Assembly: GCA_030637775.1 (NCBI GenBank)
Contig: DAOWFY010000123.1
Coordinates: 1-12,935 of the forward strand
Length of the DNA: 12,935 nt
Source of the DNA: DAOVGU01 sp030637775 [NCBI: bacterium]
GTDB lineage: Bacteria; Ratteibacteria; UBA8468
Direction of reading: 5' to 3'
Each line of letters opens with the position of its first letter. Positions within the stretch are counted from its first letter, which is position 1. This document shows, one piece after another, positions 1,220 to 9,778 of this stretch. The position numbers were made by a program, and so were the translations under genes. The notes under the pieces were generated by a model, which did no database searches, was not told where the DNA came from, and saw only the letters and a program-made list of their open reading frames with translations.

Positions 1220-1243
1220 GGGTTCGATAAATCGAACCCCTAC
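1220..1243 (-). repeat. GTAG-tagged hairpin, copy 1
   Basis: On the plus strand GGGTTCGA-TAAA-TCGAACCC is a perfect 8-bp stem with a 4-nt loop, followed at once by CTAC (read on the minus strand: GTAG then hairpin). It lies 46 bp upstream of the GspG-like start, in the 176-bp gap between two prepilin genes. It shares its layout but not its stem sequence with the hairpins at 3120-3141, 3147-3168 and 9755-9778. Confidence 0.75.
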
Positions 1244-1297
1244 TCACCCCCACCTATCTCCTCCCCCCTTGAGGGGGAGGATTAAGGAGAGGGGGAG
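1243..1297. repeat. C-rich/G-rich long imperfect hairpin (REP-like)
   Basis: An inner perfect 9-bp stem (TCCTCCCCC at 1259-1267 with GGGGGAGGA at 1273-1281, loop CTTGA) sits inside an outer imperfect pairing of the CTCACCCCCACCT block (1243-1255) with the AAGGAGAGGGGGAG block (1284-1297). It directly abuts the GTAG-tagged hairpin. No U-run follows on either strand, so it is not a standard terminator. It looks like an interspersed intergenic repeat. A further small stem, AGATGT with ACATCT, overlaps its end at 1296-1312. Confidence 0.6.
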
Positions 1298-1350
1298 ATG
1301 TTTCCCACATCTTCTTGATAAACCAAGCAACTAAAAACTATTGCCAGTCA

Positions 1351-1926
1351 CTACCAGCCGCTGGAGATAATGACTGAATTACCACTAGTATCGTATGCTA
1401 CATTGCCTGGAATTGTAGGACTAGATTTTTTAATATCATTCTTTCTAACCCAGTGGCTGCTGCCATCAAGATAGAAAACATTAATTCCGGTTTTGTGATT
1501 ATCAATTTTATTATCACTTACTACCGGGTCGGTGTCTTTATAGCCTACCTTTAATTTATAGACATAGGCATAACTATCTTCAATGGTAGTTGTATCTAAA
1601 TCTGATGGCTGCGGTTTTTTAGATGGGCACCAGAAGGTCTCGGGGGCATCCTTTTTGATATAGTAAGAATAGAGATGTCCTTTCTTATCGGCATCAGTAT
1701 AAGTGGTGGAGCTATATAACGCCTCTTTGCAGTCAGGATAAGATTGAGACCAATCATCGGCATACATCTGAAAGGCAAGTCCAATCTGCCTCAGATTATT
1801 AAAGCATATATGACGCCTTGCATTTCTTCTGGCGGCAGAAAGAGCGGGCAAGAGAATGGCGGTCAAAACAGCCACAATGCCAATGACAATGAGCAATTCC
1901 AAAAGGGTGAACCCTCTATTTTTCAT
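1351..1926 (-). CDS. H-X9-DG type prepilin-like protein
   Basis: 191 residues beginning [26 protein letters not shown]: class III prepilin leader cut after Gly5, Glu at mature position 5, then the assembly helix. Near the C-terminus is [12 protein letters not shown], which is exactly His, nine residues, Asp-Gly: the motif that names the prepilin-type processing-associated H-X9-DG family. After the helix the sequence has the usual [19 protein letters not shown] segment of that family. These proteins are common in multiple copies in PVC and related bacteria and their function is not settled; surface or extracellular-matrix roles are assumed. The start at 1926 is preceded by GAGGAA at a long spacing of about 12 nt. 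It is 19 bp downstream of the DUF2283 gene and probably co-transcribed with it. Confidence 0.9.
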
Positions 1927-1945
1927 TATTTTTCTATGTTCCTCA

Positions 1946-2155
1946 TCAACGAAGACTGACAGAGAGAGGTTTCTCTTTCTTCCCCCTTAGGGCACTGACT
2001 TTCAGAATAGAGAATCCGATGACACCGCCTTGCTTATCAACCTTTTCCATTACGGCGTCGTTCTCTGTCTCTCGGAAATATCCAACCTTCCGTTTAAAGA
2101 GGACCTCAAGATAATCCCCCTCGGGGTCATACCAGACCTTTATCCCTTTTCCCAT
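1946..2155 (-). CDS. DUF2283 family protein
   Basis: A 69-residue protein with the DUF2283 pattern: [15 protein letters not shown] near the N-terminus (the family's YDxExDxLyI strand), then an acidic strand, then [18 protein letters not shown] (family: ld.dG.ivGieIl..s). The C-terminus is basic. A strong purine-rich ribosome site (GGGGGAGAG) precedes the ATG by 3-4 nt. DUF2283 proteins are small and often sit beside a small toxin-like gene, so an antitoxin-type role is suspected, but the biochemistry is not established. Here the upstream partner is stunted (see 2140-2271) and overlaps it by 16 nt. Finding this pair between two prepilin genes is odd and may reflect insertion of a small two-gene module. 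Confidence 0.8.
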
Positions 2156-2271
2156 AATCTCTCCCCCTTTTTAATCTGCCCAGACATTTCTGGATGGTCA
2201 TCCTCAATATGGGACTCACGTTCAGATTCGAGATGAATAGTATAACCATAGAGATCCTTAAATCTTTTCAT
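2140..2271 (-). pseudogene. Short toxin-like frame, probably truncated partner of the DUF2283 gene
   Basis: A 43-codon frame running from ATG 2271 to TAA 2140, in another phase from the DUF2283 gene and overlapping its start by 16 nt. The peptide contains DLYGYTIHLESER and HIEDDHPEM. This matches the N-terminal signature (D.yG..I.L..ER..HI...HPEM) of small proteins commonly encoded next to DUF2283 genes, which I recall as about 90 residues or more. The match ends after the HPEM motif and the frame stops soon after, so the C-terminal half is missing. No good ribosome site is visible. It may be a decayed toxin, or a leader peptide coupling translation to the DUF2283 gene. The assignment is from memory of the motif, not a search. 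Confidence 0.5.
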
Positions 2272-2290
2272 TCAATTCTTATTATGCATT

Positions 2291-3109
2291 TTATGGTCTG
2301 CCGGCCCGATAACGTTTCTTGATCTCGCCAGCCGAAAGGGCAACGTCAAAGATTGCCACCTCGTCGATGAGGCCGTTAAAATAATTTTCACTTAGATCTC
2401 CACCTGAACAAAATCTATCTATCTGGGAAAGAGGAGTAAAACCTGTGGCGGAATTTTCAAAGACACCATTGATATATACTTTTGCCGTGGTTCCTTCTTG
2501 CGTAAATACAACATGTTGCCAATTGCCAACATCAATGTTAGACAAAGAAGATAAAACAGCGAATGGAGTAACATGTTCGCGCATTCTCCAAACACTATTT
2601 CCTGTATAAACACTTCCATAATTGTAAGCGCTGCCAGCGTGGTCTGTAATCTGCATCTCTGCATCCACATTTGGTTTAGCCCAAAATTCAATTGTATAAT
2701 CTCCTCCTAAAACTATTTGTGAAACATCAATATAATCATTGCCATCAAAACTCAAACAGGGTTTGGCAACAAATCTGCCATTTTCAACCAAGGTAGGTTC
2801 ATTTGCTGCTGTGCCGCCGCCAAGTTCCCCATCACAATCCTCAGCAGTATGGCCGATGAGGTCACCTGTATAGGCATAGGCAAGGTTGGCTACCCAGTTA
2901 TCATTATCGCTATCTTCATAAGTTTCTTCAAATGTCCAGTAGGCAACGCAATTTGGGTCATTTTTGTTAGATTGCTTTAATCCACACCAACTGGCATAAT
3001 GAGCTCTTCTTCTGGCGACTTGAAGAGCCGGGAGAAGAAGGGCGGCAAGAGCGGAAATAATGGCAATGACAACGAGCAACTCCAACAGCGTAAAACCTTT
3101 ATTTTTCAT
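2291..3109 (-). CDS. Prepilin-type protein with C-terminal LamG/concanavalin A-like domain
   Basis: 272 residues. The N-terminus [25 protein letters not shown] is a prepilin leader with Gly5 cleavage site and Glu at mature position 5. From about residue 55 to 265 there is a LamG/laminin-G-like jelly roll: AYWTFEE, CLSFDGNDYIDVS, DYTIEFWAKPN, WQHVVFTQEGTTAKVYINGV and FNGLIDEVAIFDVALSAGEI are its typical strands. This domain usually binds glycans or protein surfaces, so a pilin anchor carrying an adhesive or carbohydrate-binding head is the natural reading (inference). The start has the strongest ribosome site of the cluster, AGGAGG, 3-4 nt before ATG 3109. Two GTAG-tagged hairpins lie immediately upstream. 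Downstream it is followed within 20 bp by the DUF2283 module. Confidence 0.87.
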   Translation of the reverse strand: MKNKGFTLLELLVVIAIISALAALLLPALQVARRRAHYASWCGLKQSNKNDPNCVAYWTFEETYEDSDNDNWVANLAYAYTGDLIGHTAEDCDGELGGGTAANEPTLVENGRFVAKPCLSFDGNDYIDVSQIVLGGDYTIEFWAKPNVDAEMQITDHAGSAYNYGSVYTGNSVWRMREHVTPFAVLSSLSNIDVGNWQHVVFTQEGTTAKVYINGVFENSATGFTPLSQIDRFCSGGDLSENYFNGLIDEVAIFDVALSAGEIKKRYRAGRP

Positions 3110-3119
3110 TTTCCTCCTT

Positions 3120-3141
3120 GCAGAGTAAACTCTGCCACTAC
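3120..3141 (-). repeat. GTAG-tagged hairpin, copy 2
   Basis: GCAGAG-TAAA-CTCTGC is a perfect 6-bp stem with a 4-nt loop on the plus strand, followed by CACTAC (minus strand: GTAGTG then the hairpin). It is 11 bp upstream of the LamG prepilin start, adjoining its ribosome site. Confidence 0.7.
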
Positions 3142-3146
3142 AAACA

Positions 3147-3168
3147 GCAAAGCAAGCTTTGCCACTAC
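3147..3168 (-). repeat. GTAG-tagged hairpin, copy 3
   Basis: GCAAAG-CAAG-CTTTGC, a perfect 6-bp stem with a 4-nt loop, followed by CACTAC. It is a tandem neighbour of copy 2 with a different stem but the same tag. The next bases repeat ACTAC, and the stop codon of the membrane protein gene (TAG, complement of 3170-3172) falls inside that extra tag. Confidence 0.7.
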
Positions 3169-3169
3169 A

Positions 3170-3628
3170 CTACAGTTTACAGATAAGAAAGGCAATAAGA
3201 ATAAAGTATAACCCTTGAAGTCTAAATAAAATTCTTTCCTGAAAAAGTGTTGCTATCGTTCCTTTGTTCAGCAACCTCCCAATGAGCCTTCTATCTATCC
3301 TGCTCATTAAGTCCGGGTTAAAGATAAAAAGAGTGCCCATAATAAAGGAGAGAGCGAGAGAAACTACTTTAGTTATATTCAGAAGGGAATCAGAAGTGAA
3401 GGAGAAAAGACGGATTAGAGCGAAGAGAACCAATAATGACAGGGTAAACTCTGAGAATTGTAAAAGAGGAGATTGCCTCGCTATCGCTCGCAATGACGGA
3501 CGCCAGGAGGGAGCTGCGCTACCTTCCAGAATTTTCAGGGTAGAATGAATAAGGGGAGTAAATGAAGCTTCTTTTCTAAACTCCTTCCCTAAACCGATAA
3601 GCTCTGCCTCTAACTCTTCTTCTTTCAT
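3170..3628 (-). CDS. Small membrane protein in an anti-sigma position, with a repeat-derived insert
   Basis: 152 residues, no recognised family. The N-terminal 58 residues are soluble and charged (MKEEELEAELIGLGKEF). Three hydrophobic segments follow at about 61-77, 88-103 and 137-152, so the N-terminus is likely cytoplasmic. No zinc-finger Cys/His motif of classical anti-sigma factors is present. Its gene starts just after the point where the sigma-factor frame (3812-3905) would have ended, the usual place of an anti-sigma or sigma-regulating membrane protein. Residues about 36-55 (SAAPSWRPSLRAIARQSPLL) are encoded by an interspersed DNA repeat (3469-3522) and are probably not ancestral. The ATG at 3628 has only a weak TAGAG ribosome site, consistent with former translational coupling to the sigma gene. 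Function unproven. Confidence 0.6.
   Translation of the reverse strand: MKEEELEAELIGLGKEFRKEASFTPLIHSTLKILEGSAAPSWRPSLRAIARQSPLLQFSEFTLSLLVLFALIRLFSFTSDSLLNITKVVSLALSFIMGTLFIFNPDLMSRIDRRLIGRLLNKGTIATLFQERILFRLQGLYFILIAFLICKL
3469..3522. repeat. Interspersed repeat inserted in frame in a coding sequence
   Basis: The plus-strand stretch from 3469 to 3497 (GAGATTGCCTCGCTATCGCT...GCAATGAC) is a relative of the widespread bacterial dispersed repeat that reads GTCATTGCGAG...GCAATCTC on the other strand; its ends ATTGC and GCAAT are inverted. It continues into CGCCAG-GAGGGAG-CTGCG followed by CTAC (3501-3522), an imperfect version of the GTAG-tagged hairpin. Both lie inside the membrane protein gene, keep its frame, and encode the RPSLRAIARQS-like peptide typical of such repeats. 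Confidence 0.65.
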
Positions 3629-3675
3629 CTCTATATATTTAGTACCATTTTTGATTGAAAAGGTTCATTCGAGAG

Positions 3676-3811
3676 AAGGGGTCAGGTCTCAACATTTGAC
3701 AATTTATTTTAGATGAAGACTATTTTTAAATTAGACAGGTATAGGAGATAATGGCAAACTAATACAATTAAGTTTATAAACGTTTTGTCAAATGTTGAGA
3801 CCTGACCCCTT
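3676..3811. mobile_element. 136-bp MITE-like element with perfect 27-bp terminal inverted repeats
   Basis: The left end 3676-3702 begins AAGGGGTCAGGTCTCAACAT and the right end 3785-3811 is its exact reverse complement over all 27 bases. The 82-bp interior is AT-rich and has no gene. The GGGGTCAGGTCT...TTTGACA end resembles ends I associate with small elements mobilised by Y1/REP-type transposases (from memory). AGAG occurs on both sides (3672-3675 and 3813-3816), a possible 4-bp target duplication in a low-complexity setting. It sits inside the 3' end of the sigma-factor remnant; removing the element with one AGAG copy gives a frame that ends two bases before the membrane protein start. Confidence 0.8.
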
Positions 3812-3905
3812 AAGAGTCTCTTTGCCTTAAAGAGCCGGGACTTAACTGTTCCTTCCTTTATCCGCAAATGCTTGGCAATTTCAGAATAGGTAAGCTCCTC
3901 TAAAT
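3812..3905 (-). pseudogene. ECF sigma factor remnant (region 4 only)
   Basis: Read on the minus strand, this stretch encodes LEELTYSEIAKHLRIKEGTV followed by KSRLFKAKRLL. That is the helix-turn-helix of sigma-70 region 4 in ECF-type sigma factors (pattern: G.sy.EIA..L.i..GTVKSRL.rAr..L). Region 2 and everything upstream are missing: the frame is cut at 3905/3906 by the end of the IS66-like element, and downstream it runs into the MITE-like element after the final Leu codons. No start codon is left. The neighbouring membrane protein gene (3170-3628) would be its co-transcribed partner. The sigma gene is therefore inactive as it stands. Confidence 0.85.
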
Positions 3906-4099
3906 GTAATATATTAGCGTCAAAAAGTAATTCCTGCCAAACTCCTCAAACCCCCATCAACTGAAGCATACCACAAATTATTGGAAAAATCAAAAAACGT
4001 TCTTTGCTGTCAAAGCAAGTAGCAATCAACAATTTCAATTTTTGCCATAAGAGATTGTAAATAGTGTATCACCCCCCCCAACCTTGTCAAATTTCTAAT

Positions 4100-4128
4100 T
4101 TGACTTTTTATTTTCTTTATGTTATCCT
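4100..4128 (+). promoter_or_regulatory. Promoter of the IS genes, -35 overlapped by a palindrome
   Basis: TTGACT (4100-4105), a 17-bp spacer and TATCCT (4123-4128) form a plausible sigma-70 promoter 22 bp before the ATG at 4151. The -35 hexamer lies in the right arm of GTCAAATT-TCT-AATTTGAC (4086-4104), a perfect 8-bp inverted repeat that could be an operator or a small hairpin damping read-through from outside. Confidence 0.5.
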
Positions 4129-4150
4129 ATCAATTAAAATTAAAAGGATA

Positions 4151-4468
4151 ATGAGTAAATACTTAAGAGAACGGCAAAAAGAGTTAATAAAAGAGGTCCC
4201 TTCCCTAAAGGGAGTTATTCGGGGAACCTTGAGAGAAGTTTACGCTCCCTGTGGAAAAAGAAACTGCAGGTGTAAGAAAGGATTCCTCCATGGTCCTTAC
4301 TATTACCTTGCGGTCAGAACTAAAGGGAAAACCAAGATGTACTATTTGCCTCACCCTTCTTTAGGAAAGAAAGCAAAAAAGGCAATAGCCCAATACAACA
4401 AACTCTGGAATCTCTTTTGTAAGATCTCCGAAATCAACATTAAGTTATTAAAAGAAGAAAAGAGATGA
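4151..4468 (+). CDS. IS-associated DUF6788 family protein
   Basis: 105 residues from the ATG at 4151, which has AAAGGATA just upstream; an in-frame upstream start at 4064 would add a hydrophobic stretch lying over the promoter and is unlikely. The core is CGKRNCRC (Cys34, Cys39, Cys41) followed by HGPYYYL and a basic MYYLP strand, the pattern of DUF6788 proteins. These are small cysteine-containing proteins found upstream of IS66-type transposases and probably bind zinc or DNA. The stop overlaps the transposase start in an ATGA arrangement (4465-4468), so the two are translationally coupled. Its role in transposition is not known. Confidence 0.85.
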   Translation: MSKYLRERQKELIKEVPSLKGVIRGTLREVYAPCGKRNCRCKKGFLHGPYYYLAVRTKGKTKMYYLPHPSLGKKAKKAIAQYNKLWNLFCKISEINIKLLKEEKR

Positions 4469-5937
4469 ACCAAAAAGATACTTTTGAAATCAGATCTAAA
4501 ATTTGCCCAAATAAAGAGGCCTGTCCTTACCTTAACTTTGAAAATCCAGAAAAGGTATTAGCCGAGAGAGATTATCTTAGAGGAAGGGTAGATGAAATGG
4601 AGATCACTTTTAACCTTGCTACTGGAAAGATTAAGTTGTTGTATAAAGAAATTGCTTCCTTAAAAGAAGAAAACACCGCCCTTAAAGCCGAGGCAAAAGA
4701 AGAAAGGAAAAAGATTTATAAACCAGCAAAGAAGGAAAAGGAATCCGGGAAGCCTGGTGCTCCCTTTGGCCATCCAGGAATTACCAGAGAAAAACCGAAA
4801 GAGCCTGATAGGAAAGTATCAGTCCATCTTAAAAATTGCCCTCACTGTAAAGGCAAAGTAAAGAGAATCTACGGAAAAGGCGCTTTTTCTGATCACACCC
4901 AGGAGGATATCGTGATTATAAAAGAAACTATTCTTTTCCGGCATTACAAGTACTGGTGTCCGAAATGTAAAAAAATAGTTGCTGGAATAGGAAAAGGAGA
5001 AATCCCCAGAAGTTATATTGGACCTAATGCTGTCGTAATCAGTAATCTCGCTCACTATGATATTGGTATTCCCTATGAGAAATTGAAGAGATTCTATACC
5101 GACATCTTCAGCCTACCTCTTACTACCGGCGCTCTTATTGGAATGGATAAAAAAGTTGCAGAAAAAGGTATTCCTCTCTACACAGAGTTAGAAAAAAGGA
5201 TAAAGGACTCTTCGGTCAGTTACACCGATGAAACCGGTTGGCCTATCAATGGAGAGCTCCACTGGCTATGGCATGCCGGCAATAAAGAAGTTTCTCTCTA
5301 TACCATAGATAAGCATCGTAGTCATAATGTTGCGGAAAGAATCCTGGGGAAGAATTACAAAGGGATAATTGTCTCTGATTGTCTTGGTGCCTATAATTTA
5401 GTGAAGGCAGGTGCCAAACAGAAATGTATCGCCCATATCTTGCGGGACTTAGATAACTTAACTATCCTCTATCCTGACAATCTTGAAGTTATCGCCTTCT
5501 CCGTCAATTTAGAAAATATCCTGCACGAAGGGTTGGATTTAAAGAAAGATTATGAGAAGAATCAATGTACACTTGATGACCTAAAGGCAAGTAGAGAAGA
5601 TTTAGAGAAGAAACTTGAGGCTTTAACTAGGGTAAAGATTACAAATAAAAAAGCCGAGGCTTTAAGAAAAAGGTTAATCCGGCATAAAAATGAACTCTTC
5701 ACTTTTCTTTCTTATCCAGAGGTGGAACCCACAAATAACTTTGCGGAAAGGCAACTACGCTCCAGTGTAATCTCAAGAAAACTTTCCTTTGGCAATAAAA
5801 CAAAGGCAGGAGCAGATAGACATAGCATAATGATGAGCTTAATTCAGACCGCTAAACTTCGAGATAAGAGTCCAAAAGATTTACTTTTCTCTTTTATCTT
5901 GGCTTCTCCAGAAATAAGAGCACCTACCTTCTGGTAA
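4465..5937 (+). CDS. tnpC: IS66 family transposase
   Basis: 490 residues, near the usual IS66 transposase length. In order: a CPNKEACPYLNFENP N-terminus and a coiled-coil-like charged helix (about 30-90); a GKPGAPFGHPGITRE linker typical of the family; a zinc-binding module with CPHC (125-128) and CPKC (165-168); and the DDE nuclease core. The catalytic triad is readable as Asp255 (YTDETGW), Asp305 (VSDCLGAY) and Glu428 (NNFAERQLR), followed by the KLSFGNKTKAGADRH segment found in IS66 enzymes. The helical insertion between the second Asp and the Glu is intact. No frameshift or internal stop is seen, so the enzyme could be active. It starts by ATGA overlap with the DUF6788 gene. Confidence 0.95.
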   Translation: MNQKDTFEIRSKICPNKEACPYLNFENPEKVLAERDYLRGRVDEMEITFNLATGKIKLLYKEIASLKEENTALKAEAKEERKKIYKPAKKEKESGKPGAPFGHPGITREKPKEPDRKVSVHLKNCPHCKGKVKRIYGKGAFSDHTQEDIVIIKETILFRHYKYWCPKCKKIVAGIGKGEIPRSYIGPNAVVISNLAHYDIGIPYEKLKRFYTDIFSLPLTTGALIGMDKKVAEKGIPLYTELEKRIKDSSVSYTDETGWPINGELHWLWHAGNKEVSLYTIDKHRSHNVAERILGKNYKGIIVSDCLGAYNLVKAGAKQKCIAHILRDLDNLTILYPDNLEVIAFSVNLENILHEGLDLKKDYEKNQCTLDDLKASREDLEKKLEALTRVKITNKKAEALRKRLIRHKNELFTFLSYPEVEPTNNFAERQLRSSVISRKLSFGNKTKAGADRHSIMMSLIQTAKLRDKSPKDLLFSFILASPEIRAPTFW

Positions 5938-5962
5938 GAATTTCTGGTATAATAATAAAGGT

Positions 5963-6223
5963 GTGGATATCCAGATAGAAAACCTTTCCCTAAAAGAGCT
6001 GGTTGAACTTCACGATAAGATTGCCCGCCGGATATGGGAATTGCAAAGAACAAAACTCTCCGAGAAATTAGGTGAATTTCAGATAGGGGATCAGATTAGT
6101 TTTCAGTCGGAAGGCGAAACAATCACAGGCATCGTAATCAGAGTTAACCGGAAAACCTTAAGCATCAGAAGTCAAAAAGGTCATTGGTATGTGGCTCCCT
6201 GGGCTGTGACAAAAGTTTCTTAA
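5963..6223 (+). CDS. SH3-like small protein carried inside the IS (passenger gene)
   Basis: 86 residues from a GTG at 5963, the first in-frame start after the transposase. The N-terminal third is helical (SLKELVELHDKIARRIWELQRT, about 9-30). The C-terminal part (39-86) reads FQIGDQISFQSEGETITGIV, then IRVNRKTLSIRS and HWYVAPW, a small SH3/KOW-like beta barrel (GDxVsF...tGtVxRvNxKTvsV...W.VsP). I know this layout from hypothetical proteins in many bacteria; such folds often bind nucleic acid or protein. It is 25 bp after the transposase and inside the terminal repeats, so it moves with the element. No good ribosome site is visible (AAAGG is only 1-2 nt before GTG), so expression may depend on coupling. 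Function unknown. Confidence 0.7.
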   Translation: MDIQIENLSLKELVELHDKIARRIWELQRTKLSEKLGEFQIGDQISFQSEGETITGIVIRVNRKTLSIRSQKGHWYVAPWAVTKVS

Positions 6224-6259
6224 TTTCTGACGGTTTAATAGATGCTGAGGAATAGACCT

Positions 6260-6280
6260 GGTAAAGCTTTACCGATTTTT
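6260..6280 (+). terminator. Possible weak terminator at the IS right end
   Basis: GGTAAAGCTTTACC (6260-6273) is a perfect 14-bp palindrome that can fold as a 5-bp stem with an AGCT loop. It is followed by GATTTTT. It is placed after the last IS gene and just before the right terminal repeat, which itself begins with CTTTTT. The stem is AT-rich, so efficiency is doubtful. Confidence 0.35.
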
Positions 6281-6331
6281 GGGCTTTTTGACGCTAATAT
6301 ATTACTGTCACTAAGGACAAGAAATTGCAGA

Positions 6332-6426
6332 AGATGACTGGAGTTTGTAAGCGAGTTGGTGGTTATGTCGCAGATACGATAGTATCGAGGAATAAGAAAG
6401 CCCGAGCGAACAAATTCCAGCCATCT
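6332..6426. repeat. 95-bp imperfect inverted repeat of unknown nature
   Basis: Two 17-nt arms, AGATGACTGGAGTTTGT (6332-6348) and ACAAATTCCAGCCATCT (6410-6426), pair at 15 of 17 positions plus one G-U. Inside is a small stem GATAC-GATA-GTATC (6373-6386). It lies in the 181-bp gene-free gap between the IS right end (6305) and the kinase stop (6487). It could be a MITE-like remnant, a structured RNA, or a fragment of another element's end. The rest of the gap holds only a short TAATAG-AAAA-CTATTA stem (6450-6465). Confidence 0.5.
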
Positions 6427-6486
6427 CTTAATGTGGTTTACTGAGGATTTAATAGAAAACTATTATAGATGATGAGGAAAGTTCTG

Positions 6487-7995
6487 TCAAAATATCTTTT
6501 TGAATTTTTTTACTGCTTTCTTCCAGGCAAGAATATCTTTGGGTTTATAATGGGCAAGAGGGAAAGAACCTTTAACCAATCTTCTGCCTTCTTCTATAGA
6601 CTTTATTGTGCCAAGGGTTTTTGCCTGAATGAGGATATTTCCTATTGCGGTGGCCTCAATGGGACCGGCAATAACCGGAAGGCCGGTTGCCTCAGCCGTA
6701 AACTGATTAAGAAGAGGATTATTTGCCCCACCTCCGATAACATATACCCTGCTATTTTTCTTCTCGGTAATCTCCTCGATCATTTCATTTGTACGACGGT
6801 ATTTAAGCGCCAAAGATTCATAGACGATTCTTAGGGTTGTTTCTCTGTTCCGGGGAATTTTCTGTCCGGTCTTTTTACAAAAATCCTTGATTGCTTTTTC
6901 CATATTCTCGGGATTGTAGAAGATATTGTTATCCGGGTCGATAATCGCAGAAAATCTTTCTCCCTTTTTGGCCATTTTTACAATCTCATCCCAGGAAAGT
7001 TCTCTTTTATCCCTTTCTTTCCAGCTCCGACGTAACTCCTGAATAATCCAGGCTCCCATTACATTTTTGAGAAAACGGATATTTCCAATACCACCTTCAT
7101 TGGTAAAATGGTTCTGATATATCTTTTCATTAATGAGGGGAGAGGGAATTAATTTTCCCACCAGGGACCAGGTGCCGGAACTGATAATCAAGGAATTCTC
7201 TTCCTTTTCGATGGGCGCGGCGGCATAGGCACAGGCCGTATCGTGGGCCGCGGTGGCGATGATTGAACATTGATTTAGCCCAACTTCTTTGGCTATCTCC
7301 TGATGAAGAGAGCCGATTTTTGTTCCCGGGGTAGTAACCGGAGGCATAATAGAGAGAGGGATCTTAAGTTTTTCAAAAACTTTTTTGCACCAATCCTTCT
7401 TAAAAGGGTCTAAAAGTTGCGTGGTGGTAGCCCAGGTATATTCACAGATACGAGCGCCGGAAAGATAATAGTAAAAGATGCTTGTAATCGGAAGAAAGAT
7501 GTCGACCATTTTTAAAATATCCGGACGATGCTTTACCAGCCAGAAGAGTTGATTCACTTCATTGAATGGGTAACTGGGAACTCCGGTCAGTTCAAAAAGT
7601 TTTCTTTCGGGGATAATTTTAAATAACTCGTCCCTGATTTTATCCAGCCGGTGGTCCCGGTAATTATGCACCCTTCCGATGAGCTCTCCCTCTTTGGTGA
7701 AACACTCCCCGTCCGTTCCCCAGGTGTCTATTCCCAATGAATCTAAATGCTCTATCCCAAAATCCTTTAGTTTCTTTAATCCAGTAATTATCTCATCATA
7801 AATGGATAAATCGTTCCAATATATTTTATGAACAGTTTTATCCTTCTTTTGCCTTAAATAGAGGTTTATCGGTTTATTTATAAAGCGATAGACCTCTTTA
7901 GTAGAAAATTTACCTTCATCAAAGATGCCAACAATAAATTTGCCACCGGAAGCACCAATATCGAATGCCCCAATTATTTTATTTTTTGCTTTCAT
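6487..7995 (-). CDS. Rhamnulokinase-family (FGGY) sugar kinase, probable L-fuculokinase
   Basis: 502 residues, normal for the family. The N-terminal FGGY domain has the phosphate-binding loop FDIGASGGKF (11-20) and the GIDTWGTDG and HNYRDHR blocks of the rhamnulokinase branch. The catalytic base is Asp252 in AAHDTA, and the C-terminal ATPase half has SSGTWSLVG (272-280), VIGGGANNPLLNQ (419-431) and GPIEATAIGN (444-453). It would transfer phosphate from ATP to a ketose in the cytoplasm. Sequence blocks point to the RhaB group, while the neighbouring fucI suggests that the substrate is L-fuculose (inference). No downstream aldolase is in the window. The gene is cut off from the rest of the fucose operon by an opposite-strand gene and has its own promoter (8003-8032). 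Its AGGAG is 13 nt from the ATG, so translation may be leaderless. Confidence 0.9.
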   Translation of the reverse strand: MKAKNKIIGAFDIGASGGKFIVGIFDEGKFSTKEVYRFINKPINLYLRQKKDKTVHKIYWNDLSIYDEIITGLKKLKDFGIEHLDSLGIDTWGTDGECFTKEGELIGRVHNYRDHRLDKIRDELFKIIPERKLFELTGVPSYPFNEVNQLFWLVKHRPDILKMVDIFLPITSIFYYYLSGARICEYTWATTTQLLDPFKKDWCKKVFEKLKIPLSIMPPVTTPGTKIGSLHQEIAKEVGLNQCSIIATAAHDTACAYAAAPIEKEENSLIISSGTWSLVGKLIPSPLINEKIYQNHFTNEGGIGNIRFLKNVMGAWIIQELRRSWKERDKRELSWDEIVKMAKKGERFSAIIDPDNNIFYNPENMEKAIKDFCKKTGQKIPRNRETTLRIVYESLALKYRRTNEMIEEITEKKNSRVYVIGGGANNPLLNQFTAEATGLPVIAGPIEATAIGNILIQAKTLGTIKSIEEGRRLVKGSFPLAHYKPKDILAWKKAVKKFKKIF

Positions 7996-8002
7996 CTGGT
8001 AA

Positions 8003-8032
8003 ATTATACTCCTTTCGTAAATATTCAGTCAA
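8003..8032 (-). promoter_or_regulatory. Strong sigma-70-like promoter of the sugar kinase, leaderless layout
   Basis: On the minus strand TTGACT (8032-8027), an 18-bp spacer and a perfect TATAAT (8008-8003). Only 7 nt separate the -10 box from the kinase ATG at 7995, so the transcript would begin at or next to the start codon. A Shine-Dalgarno-like AGGAG lies directly before the -10 box and would not be in that transcript. Confidence 0.65.
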
Positions 8033-8057
8033 CCACGTTTAGATAATAATGCAAAAA

Positions 8058-8087
8058 TTGACAGTTCAGTAGGAAGAAGATTACAAT
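8058..8087 (+). promoter_or_regulatory. Sigma-70-like promoter of the MntA-HepT fusion gene
   Basis: A perfect TTGACA (8058-8063), an 18-bp spacer and TACAAT (8082-8087), 15 bp before the ATG at 8103. With the kinase promoter it forms a divergent pair in a 107-bp intergenic region, the two -35 boxes being 25 bp apart. Confidence 0.65.
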
Positions 8088-8102
8088 AAAGTACAAAGAG
8101 AA

Positions 8103-8936
8103 ATGGATAAAAGGATTAAACTTTTGAAAGAATATTTTGAAAAACAACCATCTGTGATTTTAGCTTTTCTATTTGGTTCAAGAGTAAAAGGTCTTGATAG
8201 AAAAATTTCTGACTGGGATATAGCTGTTTATTTTAAACCAGAAAAACACTTGGAATTAGAGGCAGAGAGAGGGTATCAAGAAGAACACAAAATCTGGTCT
8301 GATTTGGTGGATATTTTGAAGACAGATGATGTCGATTTTTTAGCCCTGAACAGAACGGCTCCTGAATTGGTTTTCAGTATTTTGAATTCAGGAGTTCCTT
8401 TGCTCATAAAAGATAGAGATTTATACATAGAACTTCTTTGCAAGACTCATTATGAGGCAATTGACTTTAGAGAATTTGCCTTTGACTTTTGGGAAATTGC
8501 TGAGAGGTCTAAATCTTTGACCAGGGAAGATAAATTCAGAATTTTAAAGAGATTGAAATTTCTGGAAAAGGAATGGGAAGAATTTGATAAATTTAAAAAA
8601 TTAACCTGGCTTGAATATCGAAGTGAACCTGATAAAAGAAGAAATGTGGAAAGATGGATAGAGAATTTGGTGATCGCTGCTTTAGATATTGCAAAAATTA
8701 TTTTGGCGGCAAAAAAGGAATTGCTCCCTGAAAGCTACAAACAAACTTTAATGTATTTTGGAGCTAAATACTTCAATGAGAGTTTTGGACGGAGCTTTTC
8801 AGAATTTGCAGAATTCAGAAATATCTTAGCTCATGAATACTCAGATATCAAATGGAGGCAAATCAAGAACTTTATCAAAGAAGCAGAAAAATTGTATCCT
8901 CAATTTGTAGAAAAAGTTAAAAAGATATCGATTTGA
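8103..8936 (+). CDS. MntA-HepT fusion: nucleotidyltransferase plus HEPN/DUF86 domain in one protein
   Basis: 277 residues. The N-terminal half is a minimal nucleotidyltransferase: LFGSRVKGL with Gly25-Ser26, ten residues, then Asp37-Trp-Asp39 (the GSx10DxD motif), and a third acidic residue Asp78 in DDVDFLALN. The C-terminal half (about 140-270) is helical and matches HepT/DUF86: NVERWIENLVIAALDIAKIILA, LPESYKQ, and the nuclease motif RNILAHEY (Arg239, His244, Tyr246; RX4HXY). In two-gene MntA-HepT systems MntA adenylylates the Tyr of that motif and silences the HepT RNase. Here both parts are one chain, so silencing could occur in cis (inference). The gene is opposite to and between fucose genes, is visibly lower in GC (about one third in a sampled line against nearly half in fucI), and has its own promoter, suggesting acquisition. 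AAAGAGAA serves as a weak ribosome site. Confidence 0.85.
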   Translation: MDKRIKLLKEYFEKQPSVILAFLFGSRVKGLDRKISDWDIAVYFKPEKHLELEAERGYQEEHKIWSDLVDILKTDDVDFLALNRTAPELVFSILNSGVPLLIKDRDLYIELLCKTHYEAIDFREFAFDFWEIAERSKSLTREDKFRILKRLKFLEKEWEEFDKFKKLTWLEYRSEPDKRRNVERWIENLVIAALDIAKIILAAKKELLPESYKQTLMYFGAKYFNESFGRSFSEFAEFRNILAHEYSDIKWRQIKNFIKEAEKLYPQFVEKVKKISI

Positions 8937-8966
8937 AGGGAAAAGAAAAGTAACAGGTAAACTTTC

Positions 8967-9743
8967 CTAAATAAAAAAAGTCCAGGGTCTGGGACAGGAG
9001 AAGAAAATTATCTTTAATTTAGGGAATCTCTTCTTTAACATTTTAGCAAAATGGGATAGCCCGGGATTTTCACTTTCGGTATGGCTGGTTTCGATTAAAG
9101 CCACATTACTATCGGCAGCGGCCATCATTGAATATTCATCCGTTTCTCCGGCAATAAGGGCATCGACTCCATAGTCAAGCATCCAGGAGATAAAACCGGC
9201 ATTGATGCTTAGACCTAATCCTCCCCAGGGAAGGCCAATTTTAGAGACCTTTTTATTCAAATCCCCGGTTACCCTCATTGCATCCAATCGCATCGCTCTT
9301 TTTACTTTTTTGGCTAAATCCTTTACCTTAATTGGTTCTATTTCAAAGATGCAGTAAAATCCTTCCTTAATTATTGGCTTGGGAAAACCCAAAACTTTCC
9401 AGAAATCGTCAAGGATGCAAAGCCTATCCAGACTTCCATGAGCGCGAAAAACGGTTATTCTGTATTGGGAAAGAAGTTCTGTCCGGGCCCGGTTGACCCG
9501 ATTGGAAAGATATTTCTCAATGGCTATATTATGGGCGTAGGAGGGAGGAAAGAATGGGTCTTCATGGACAATCATTAAATTGCAGTTTTCCTTTGCTGCT
9601 TTTTTGATTGCTGCGGTTGTTGCCATCCAGGAGATAAGAATTCCTTTCAGTTCTTCCTCGGTATTGCCAAAAAGAAATCCCTCCTCCTCTCCCAATTTTC
9701 CTGTTTTCTCTTTGAGAAATTTTTCAATCTCTTTTATCTTCAT
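8967..9743 (-). CDS. Nif3-like dinuclear metal-centre protein
   Basis: 258 residues, near the usual length of single-domain Nif3/DUF34 proteins. The pattern is readable: GILISWMATTAAIKKAA (strand and helix 1), NLMIVHEDPFF (Nif3: isHHPl.f), FRAHGSLDR (H102 and D106; Nif3: R.H...D), DALIAGETDEY, and a C-terminal ETSHTESENPG (H221 and a following Glu; Nif3: GH..sE). These supply most metal ligands, but the first His-His is His60-Glu61 here. Nif3 proteins form hexameric rings and their general biochemical role is unsettled. This one lies 37 bp downstream of fucI, separated by a tagged hairpin, so it is probably co-transcribed and may act in sugar or sugar-phosphate metabolism (inference). No ribosome site is evident at the ATG. 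It converges with the MntA-HepT gene (30-bp gap) and no clear terminator is seen there. Confidence 0.85.
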   Translation of the reverse strand: MKIKEIEKFLKEKTGKLGEEEGFLFGNTEEELKGILISWMATTAAIKKAAKENCNLMIVHEDPFFPPSYAHNIAIEKYLSNRVNRARTELLSQYRITVFRAHGSLDRLCILDDFWKVLGFPKPIIKEGFYCIFEIEPIKVKDLAKKVKRAMRLDAMRVTGDLNKKVSKIGLPWGGLGLSINAGFISWMLDYGVDALIAGETDEYSMMAAADSNVALIETSHTESENPGLSHFAKMLKKRFPKLKIIFFSCPRPWTFFI

Positions 9744-9754
9744 TTTTTACCATA

Positions 9755-9778
9755 TTGCTCAATGAATTGAGCAACTAC
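9755..9778 (-). repeat. GTAG-tagged hairpin, copy 4
   Basis: TTGCTCAA-TGAA-TTGAGCAA, a perfect 8-bp stem with a 4-nt loop on the plus strand, followed directly by CTAC. It fills almost the whole 37-bp gap between the fucI stop and the Nif3-like start, ending 11 bp before that ATG, where a ribosome site would normally be. Confidence 0.75.

What the first reader, a model, noticed from the sequence alone, without database searches (positions are those of the whole stretch)
1220..9778. A family of intergenic hairpins with unrelated stems but a constant tag: (GTAG)-stem-4 nt loop-stem
Four intergenic sites (1220-1243, 3120-3141, 3147-3168, 9755-9778) share an architecture rather than a sequence. 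Each is a perfect stem of 6-8 bp (GGGTTCGA, GCAGAG, GCAAAG, TTGCTCAA), a 4-nt loop (TAAA, TAAA, CAAG, TGAA on the plus strand), then CTAC or CACTAC. All four have the tag on the same side relative to the surrounding minus-strand genes, so each RNA would read GTAG-hairpin. Two are tandem, and two lie 11 bp from a start codon. Different stems with a fixed tag and loop size imply that structure is maintained or copied by a mechanism, rather than one repeat decaying.
Basis: partly seen in the sequence, partly recalled or inferred. Interest (0 to 1): 0.62.

Follow-up and report, generated by a model that had tools for sequence, protein, structure and literature searches.

The report
GTAG-tagged REP repeats with transposase
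The small tagged hairpins are real and recur through this uncultured bacterium's genome, but they belong to a known kind of tiny mobile repeat (REP elements) probably copied by a tamed transposase that reads their shape; it is a new and informative example, not a new system.

Summary
The four hairpins exist as described and exceed chance: 4 against 0.09 per resampled window. They are copies of genome-wide GTAG-tagged REP repeats (repetitive extragenic palindromes). In 61 stretches (497,633 bases, window included) 34 hairpins have GTAG ending exactly 8 nt before the loop, against 5 for four control tetramers pooled. Loops are Y-T-Y-R and their outer bases pair in 32 of 34, so the true loop is 2 nt. 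Stems covary. A REP-associated transposase (RAYT) gene lies in the same genome on contig C119, between lepA and a signal peptidase gene, flanked by the same repeats. Relatives without the insert at the same place in uvrC and apbE show that inverted REP dimers insert. So "copied by a mechanism" is right. The reading as RNA elements with fixed orientation is not: outside the window, REPs between co-directional genes are 5 same, 6 opposite. GTAG REPs, short TY loops, complementary stem changes, constant tag-plus-stem length, RAYT association and REPs inside RAYT genes are in print (PMC3733652, PMC6006769, PMC8266576). Verdict: new member of a known kind, in or near Candidatus Ratteibacteria.

The parts
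1220..1243 (-). REP unit GTAG-GGGTTCGA-TTTA-TCGAACCC (8-bp stem directly after the tag; GGG-foot type), 45 nt from the start of the pilin-like gene 593-1174 and 107 nt from the stop of 1351-1926
   Evidence: pattern with 31 matches in the genome, 0 for the reversed control
3118..3141 (-). REP unit GTAG-TG-GCAGAG-TTTA-CTCTGC (short-stem type; the stem itself is 3120-3135); tandem with the next unit
   Evidence: pattern with 25 matches in the genome, 0 for the reversed control
3145..3168 (-). REP unit GTAG-TG-GCAAAG-CTTG-CTTTGC (short-stem type), 1 nt behind the stop codon of ORF 3170-3628
9755..9778 (-). REP unit GTAG-TTGCTCAA-TTCA-TTGAGCAA (8-bp stem), 2 nt behind the stop codon of the L-fucose isomerase gene and 11 nt before the start of the NIF3-like gene

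Best explanation
The hairpins are REP units of the GTAG superfamily: short non-autonomous mobile repeats that a Y1 (HuH) RAYT/TnpA-REP enzyme recognises as folded single-stranded DNA. Recognition most likely rests on GTAG at the 5' foot, a fixed 8-nt distance to the loop, and a loop 5'-Y-T-Y-R whose outer bases pair. The stem may change as long as it pairs, which gives many stem subfamilies. Shown here: architecture, spacing, loop rule, compensatory changes, genome-wide copies, inverted dimers, a RAYT gene flanked by REPs in the same genome, and related genes with and without the insert. Inferred from experiments on other RAYTs (PMC8266576): single-strand recognition, GTAG as the active strand, cleavage at CT or CA beside the hairpin. 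Not shown: that this RAYT acts on these units, or any effect of the window copies on their genes; sitting mostly behind stop codons, they are probably tolerated rather than regulatory.
For: 34 of the hairpins scanned have GTAG at exactly 8 nt against at most 5 at any other distance from 4 to 16, and 5 for four control tetramers pooled at 8. Loop ends complementary in 32 of 34 and T at loop position 2 in 33 of 34, against 146 and 137 of 502 other hairpins, which include the opposite strands of the same units. On 37 units (30 distinct) 91.5% of cells pair against 62.3% in shuffles; 93 cells changed on both sides against 28.7. RAYT at G000:C119:7788-8219, E 5.3e-54, best NCBIfam match REP-associated tyrosine transposase at 64.2 bits, with REPs at 7753-7776, 8222-8245 and 8259-8282. 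Similar REP-flanked RAYTs in G001 and G003. The uvrC of G000 and G001 has the insert and that of G002 lacks it; apbE of G003, G005, G006, G007 and G008 lacks it. Near 80 RAYT relatives 145 tagged hairpins against a mean of 16.5 for control tetramers. Loop match to the Marinomonas REP, which needs T, T, any, A (PMC8266576).
Against: No activity was tested. The C119 enzyme scores below NCBIfam's curated cut-off (64.2 against 80 bits), as does the G001 enzyme (62.6), while that of G003 passes (86.2). In this genome the RAYT is flanked by the GGG-foot type; no RAYT flanked by the short-stem type was found here, though one is in G003. G002 has REPs of both patterns but no close RAYT in its 77% complete assembly, and G008, rich in REPs, shows only RAYT pieces. 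In the Marinomonas enzyme single changes of the loop-closing bases impaired cleavage, and C-G there was not reported in the sections read. Two of the structure measures do not exceed shuffles clearly: pairs with changes on both sides (9 against 7.9) and further pair types (21 against 21.1).
Confidence: 0.93

Rival explanations
1. RNA elements: the hairpins act in transcripts of the surrounding genes as attenuators, processing sites or stabilisers and are kept for that.
For: All four window units read in the direction of their genes and sit in short gaps, two of them 10-11 nt before a start codon. REPs of other species are often transcribed and can affect mRNA (PMC3733652).
Against: Orientation outside the window is 5 with and 6 against. 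No terminator-like site overlaps the hairpins; no Rfam family reaches its threshold in the window. Loop rule and tag fit a DNA enzyme's needs. Copies also lie inside protein-coding genes.
Confidence: 0.05
2. Ends of an IS200/IS605-type insertion sequence, or debris of the IS66 element in the window.
For: IS200/IS605 ends also carry subterminal hairpins with a tetranucleotide 5' to the foot (PMC6006769, passages); an IS66-family transposase gene lies at 4465-5937.
Against: The IS66 element is bounded by other 22-bp inverted repeats. Units occur singly or as 50-nt dimers, not at the ends of a gene-sized element. The nearest NCBIfam model is the REP transposase, with IS200 far weaker.
Confidence: 0.01
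3. Chance hairpins next to a common tetranucleotide.
For: A few members of the set are probably chance, such as the one with a TCTT loop at L049:1447-1470.
Against: Excess in the window, the sharp peak at 8 nt, and pattern controls of zero.
Confidence: 0.005

Closest known systems
GTAG-tagged REP superfamily (Di Nocera et al. 2013, PMC3733652; abstract, part 1 of 4 of Results and two further sections read)
   Same: GTAG foot, stems mostly 6-9 bp, very short loops many of which fit TY, complementary stem changes within families, two unpaired bases after the tag in some families, dimers, copies behind stop codons and inside genes including uvrA
   Different: Different stems; a phylum not named in the parts read; two architectures in one genome that share one tag-to-loop distance
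TnpA-REP subclasses 2.4 and 2.5 with their REPs (PMC6006769; one section and passages read)
   Same: 2.4: REPs whose foot is three G-C pairs, and REPs inside the RAYT gene without breaking its frame. 2.5: short REPs with the tag 1-2 nt off the stem and tag-plus-stem length in a narrow range
   Different: Here the G003 and G001 enzymes, lying next to the two different REP types, are 63% identical; I did not place them on a tree with labelled references
Marinomonas REPtron Mb (PMC8266576; five sections and part of the discussion read)
   Same: GTAG, two spacer bases, short perfect stem, loop TTTA with paired outer bases and an essential second T
   Different: Stem 5 bp there against 6-8 bp here, so the tag-to-loop distance is 7 nt there (my sum) and 8 nt here; CTTG loops occur here
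SMAG repeats and REPtron Sm of Stenotrophomonas maltophilia (PMC8266576, PMC3733652)
   Same: GTAG directly at the foot of an 8-bp perfect stem; several stem families in one genome
   Different: 3-nt loop with an essential G there

Membership tests
GTAG REP superfamily | Tetranucleotide GTAG at the 5' foot of a short palindrome | tested here: met
   Peak of 34 at 8 nt; paired against unpaired groups from tag-only seeds: 19 of 85 and 11 of 41 fully paired
GTAG REP superfamily | Many dispersed copies, often as inverted dimers | tested here: met
   25 and 31 pattern matches in the genome; 12 close pairs in the sample, 11 inverted
GTAG REP superfamily | Mostly extragenic | tested here: inconclusive
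   15 of 34 fall inside crude frames; of the eight such frames searched all had Pfam domains, five of them with the REP well inside the gene by position
REPtron (REPs with their own RAYT) | RAYT gene in the genome flanked by the same REPs | tested here: met
   C119 locus for the GGG-foot type; for the short-stem type only in the relative G003
REPtron (REPs with their own RAYT) | Enzyme cuts and joins the GTAG strand | not testable with these tools
   Needs purified protein
TnpA-REP subclass 2.4 | GGG/CCC foot and REPs inside the RAYT gene | tested here: met
   GGG-foot family; internal REPs in G003 and in 29 of 80 relatives, not in the middle of the C119 gene
TnpA-REP subclass 2.4 or 2.5 | Place of the enzyme in the published tree | not tested
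   No labelled reference set was at hand
Intrinsic terminator | G+C-rich hairpin followed by a T run | tested here: not met
   No listed site overlaps the four hairpins
Known Rfam RNA | Match at the gathering score | tested here: not met
   0 matches in the window

The most novel reading that the evidence does not exclude
In this lineage one clade of RAYTs reads a pure shape code (GTAG, an 8-nt ruler, loop Y-T-Y-R whose closing pair may be T-A or C-G) and is nearly blind to the stem sequence. One enzyme could then mobilise every stem family in the genome, and new families would arise by compensated drift without a new enzyme. Inverted dimers of the GGG-foot type also settle in frame in excision repair genes (uvrA and uvrC here), as reported from other phyla, which would hint at a link between REP processing and repair.
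Probability: 0.2. Interest if true: 0.5.

Novelty: new member of a known kind. Interest (0 to 1): 0.3.

Why it matters
It brings the REP/RAYT system, enzyme and substrates together, into or near Candidatus Ratteibacteria and shows both described REP architectures beside closely related enzymes. The natural variation (ten stems, one ruler, one loop rule) is a ready-made test of how these enzymes recognise DNA; a confirmed shape code would explain why REP stems diversify. For this window it also warns against reading the hairpins as regulators.

Tried and rejected
1. 'No cognate RAYT in this genome' was my first reading of the Pfam Y1_Tnp searches, which listed two genes of another type. A profile of close RAYTs found the cognate gene; scanned directly, that gene does match Y1_Tnp at 28.1 bits, so the first look of the genome search had missed it.

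2. REPs inside RAYT genes looked new; they are described for subclass 2.4 (PMC6006769).

3. Fixed orientation to genes: rejected. Terminator or known RNA family: nothing found.

4. Comparing the fucose isomerase-NIF3 site in relatives: the best NIF3 matches outside this genome are 35% identical; I did not compare the gap further.

5. The idea that such loops form special compact DNA hairpins rests on recall; two literature searches did not bear on it.

6. The gap at apbE residues 152-176 in G001 and G003 is not a REP insertion; four of the six other genomes' homologues have residues there.

7. A first covariation count used 24 units typed by hand: it left out several distinct units and one carried a wrong letter at position 23. 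I discarded it and repeated it with all 34 units and three near-perfect ones by reference. The percentage paired fell from 93.5 to 91.5.

Limits: the sample is 60 of 177 contigs (two cut at 20,000 bases) plus the window. Frames are crude (at least 100 aa, longest first). The rows were mostly chosen for six inner pairs, so only the loop pair and the outer two pairs are free of that choice.
Full report
What was checked. Resampled windows hold 0.09 such hairpins on average, at most 1 in 100 runs, against 4. The window is the whole of contig C101 of a 1.397-Mb assembly in 177 contigs, 83.5% complete.

Genome-wide family. A pattern built on the short-stem units had 15 matches in the genome and none for its reversed control. 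Contigs C1-C60 taken as stretches make, with the window, 61 stretches and 497,633 bases, about 36% of the genome. Among all hairpins with a 4-nt loop and at least six perfect pairs, both strands, GTAG ends exactly 8 nt before the loop in 34, and in at most 5 at any other distance from 4 to 16; four control tetramers pooled give 5 at that distance. Seen from the loop, 40 hairpins have a Y-T-Y-R loop with pairing ends; 32 of them have GTAG at that place and 2 GGAG. Loop ends pair in 32 of 34 tagged hairpins and position 2 is T in 33 of 34. So the loop is 2 nt, closed by T-A or C-G. Stems of 8 bp follow the tag directly; those of 6 bp come after two mostly unpaired bases; the distance stays 8 nt.

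Stems. The 37 units show ten different stems if the longer and shorter forms of GCAAAG are counted once and one probable chance hairpin and three imperfect units are left aside. Seeds chosen without regard to pairing (GTAGT[GT]G, GTAGGGG) fall into a paired and an unpaired group: 19 of 85 pair 6/6 and 11 of 41 pair 8/8, with one at 5/6 and two at 7/8. Over 37 units (30 distinct) 91.5% of cells pair against 62.3% in shuffles, 93 cells are changed on both sides against 28.7, and sliding the partners removes the signal. The loop-closing pair, which did not enter the choice of rows, is U-A in 20, C-G in 8 and neither in 2. Two measures do not stand out: pairs with changes on both sides, 9 against 7.9, and further pair types, 21 against 21.1.

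Position and orientation. Of 34 units, 15 fall inside crude frames, 15 between co-directional genes, 2 between divergent genes and 2 at contig edges. Between co-directional genes 9 read with the genes and 6 against; four of the nine are the window's. Close pairs: 7 with tags outside, 4 with tags inside, 1 tandem (the window's). Closeness to stop codons is described for REPs elsewhere (PMC3733652).

Enzyme. The first Pfam search listed two Y1 transposases with long C-termini, without GTAG hairpins within about 1.5 kb; they go with a second repeat family, see the notes. In G003, of the same family, a 152-aa RAYT holds two short-stem REPs inside its frame and one just outside. A profile of 13 RAYTs then found a 167-aa frame in the window's own genome at C119:7788-8219, with REPs at 7753-7776, 8222-8245 and 8259-8282, lepA on one side and a signal peptidase I gene on the other. 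G001:C214 has one REP on one side and three on the other. The two patterns occur in 7 and 6 of 41 genomes; all are in families f1 and f2 except one match in G019. Copy number and enzyme do not always go together: G008 has 44 and 123 matches and only RAYT pieces, G002 14 and 7 and no close RAYT.

Wider RAYT loci. Of the 80 best relatives of the G003 enzyme in named genomes, 43 hold at least one tagged hairpin and 34 at least two, 145 in all against 16.5 for the mean of four control tetramers. In 29 of 80 at least one lies inside the RAYT frame. In 14 of 80 a plus-strand unit stands before the HuH motif and a minus-strand unit after it, tags outward; in one of the 80 no HuH motif was found. [quoted passage not shown] The bracketing of HuH is a detail I did not see in the passages read; its supplement was not read.

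Mobility. In uvrC, G000 and G001 carry a stretch coding the inverted dimer, and G002, 74% identical, lacks it; more distant homologues align poorly there. In apbE, G000 has a dimer where G003, G005, G006, G007 and G008 have none and G001 has an unrelated insert. So units insert, sometimes in frame.

How it most likely works. By analogy with tested enzymes, RAYT binds the folded GTAG strand when DNA is single-stranded, uses GTAG as a guide and cuts at CT or CA near the hairpin (PMC8266576). The Marinomonas REP is closest in shape; its loop needs T, T, any, A, and the authors suggest that the first and last pair. The invariant second T and the pairing ends agree. The natural C-G form suggests that for this enzyme pairing may suffice, although single changes of those bases impaired the Marinomonas enzyme. 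This last step is inference.

Known or new. GTAG foot, TY loops, complementary stem variants, dimers, narrow tag-plus-stem length, RAYT link and intragenic copies are in print. The word Ratteibacteria gave five papers with one mention each, and no paper held both 'repetitive extragenic palindromic' and 'Elusimicrobia'; the library is partial, so this is weak evidence that the phylum is new for REPs. I file it as a new member of a known kind.

Noticed in passing
window 3676-3702 and 3785-3811: A second repeat family: 27-bp perfect inverted arms (GGGGTCAGGTCTCAACATTTGACAA), 82 nt apart. A 24-nt core has 46 matches in this genome, 50 in G001, 31 in G002 and 2 in G003 with up to 2 mismatches, none in the other 7 of 11 genomes. 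The arms bracket the Y1 transposase gene on C119 (L001) and related arms the one in L002. Fits the TIR-flanked RAYTs of PMC3733652, whose TIRs share GGGGWSAS.
   Followed up: partly
L005:609-658, L042:12233-12282, L009:4255-4304, L066:3868-3917, L070:3101-3156: Inverted dimers of the GGG-foot type inside frames with UvrA, UvrC, class I tRNA synthetase, Mur ligase and ApbE domains (second units of L066 and L070). Two of the five are excision repair genes, as PMC3733652 reports for other species. Related genes without the insert were checked for uvrC and apbE only.
   Followed up: partly
L112-L114, L117, L119, L120, L130, L133, L144, L147-L150, L153: In these 14 of 80 RAYT loci an inverted REP pair brackets the HuH motif inside the RAYT gene; the plus-strand unit is always read in the same frame (GTA G..).
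   Followed up: partly
L013:4904-4945: Two overlapping inverted hairpins with CTTG loops carry GGAG in place of GTAG at the same 8-nt distance, perhaps a tag variant.
   Followed up: no
window 3906-6305: IS66-family element: transposase gene 4465-5937 between perfect 22-bp inverted ends. The flanking 8-bp stretches are not duplicated, read by eye.
   Followed up: no
window 6329-6424: Similar to the first 44 residues of the apbE frame at L070, a stretch with several further matches in G000, G001 and G003: another dispersed repeat.
   Followed up: no
G001 apbE (L238): At the site where G000 has a REP dimer, G001 has a different insert of about 30 residues.
   Followed up: no
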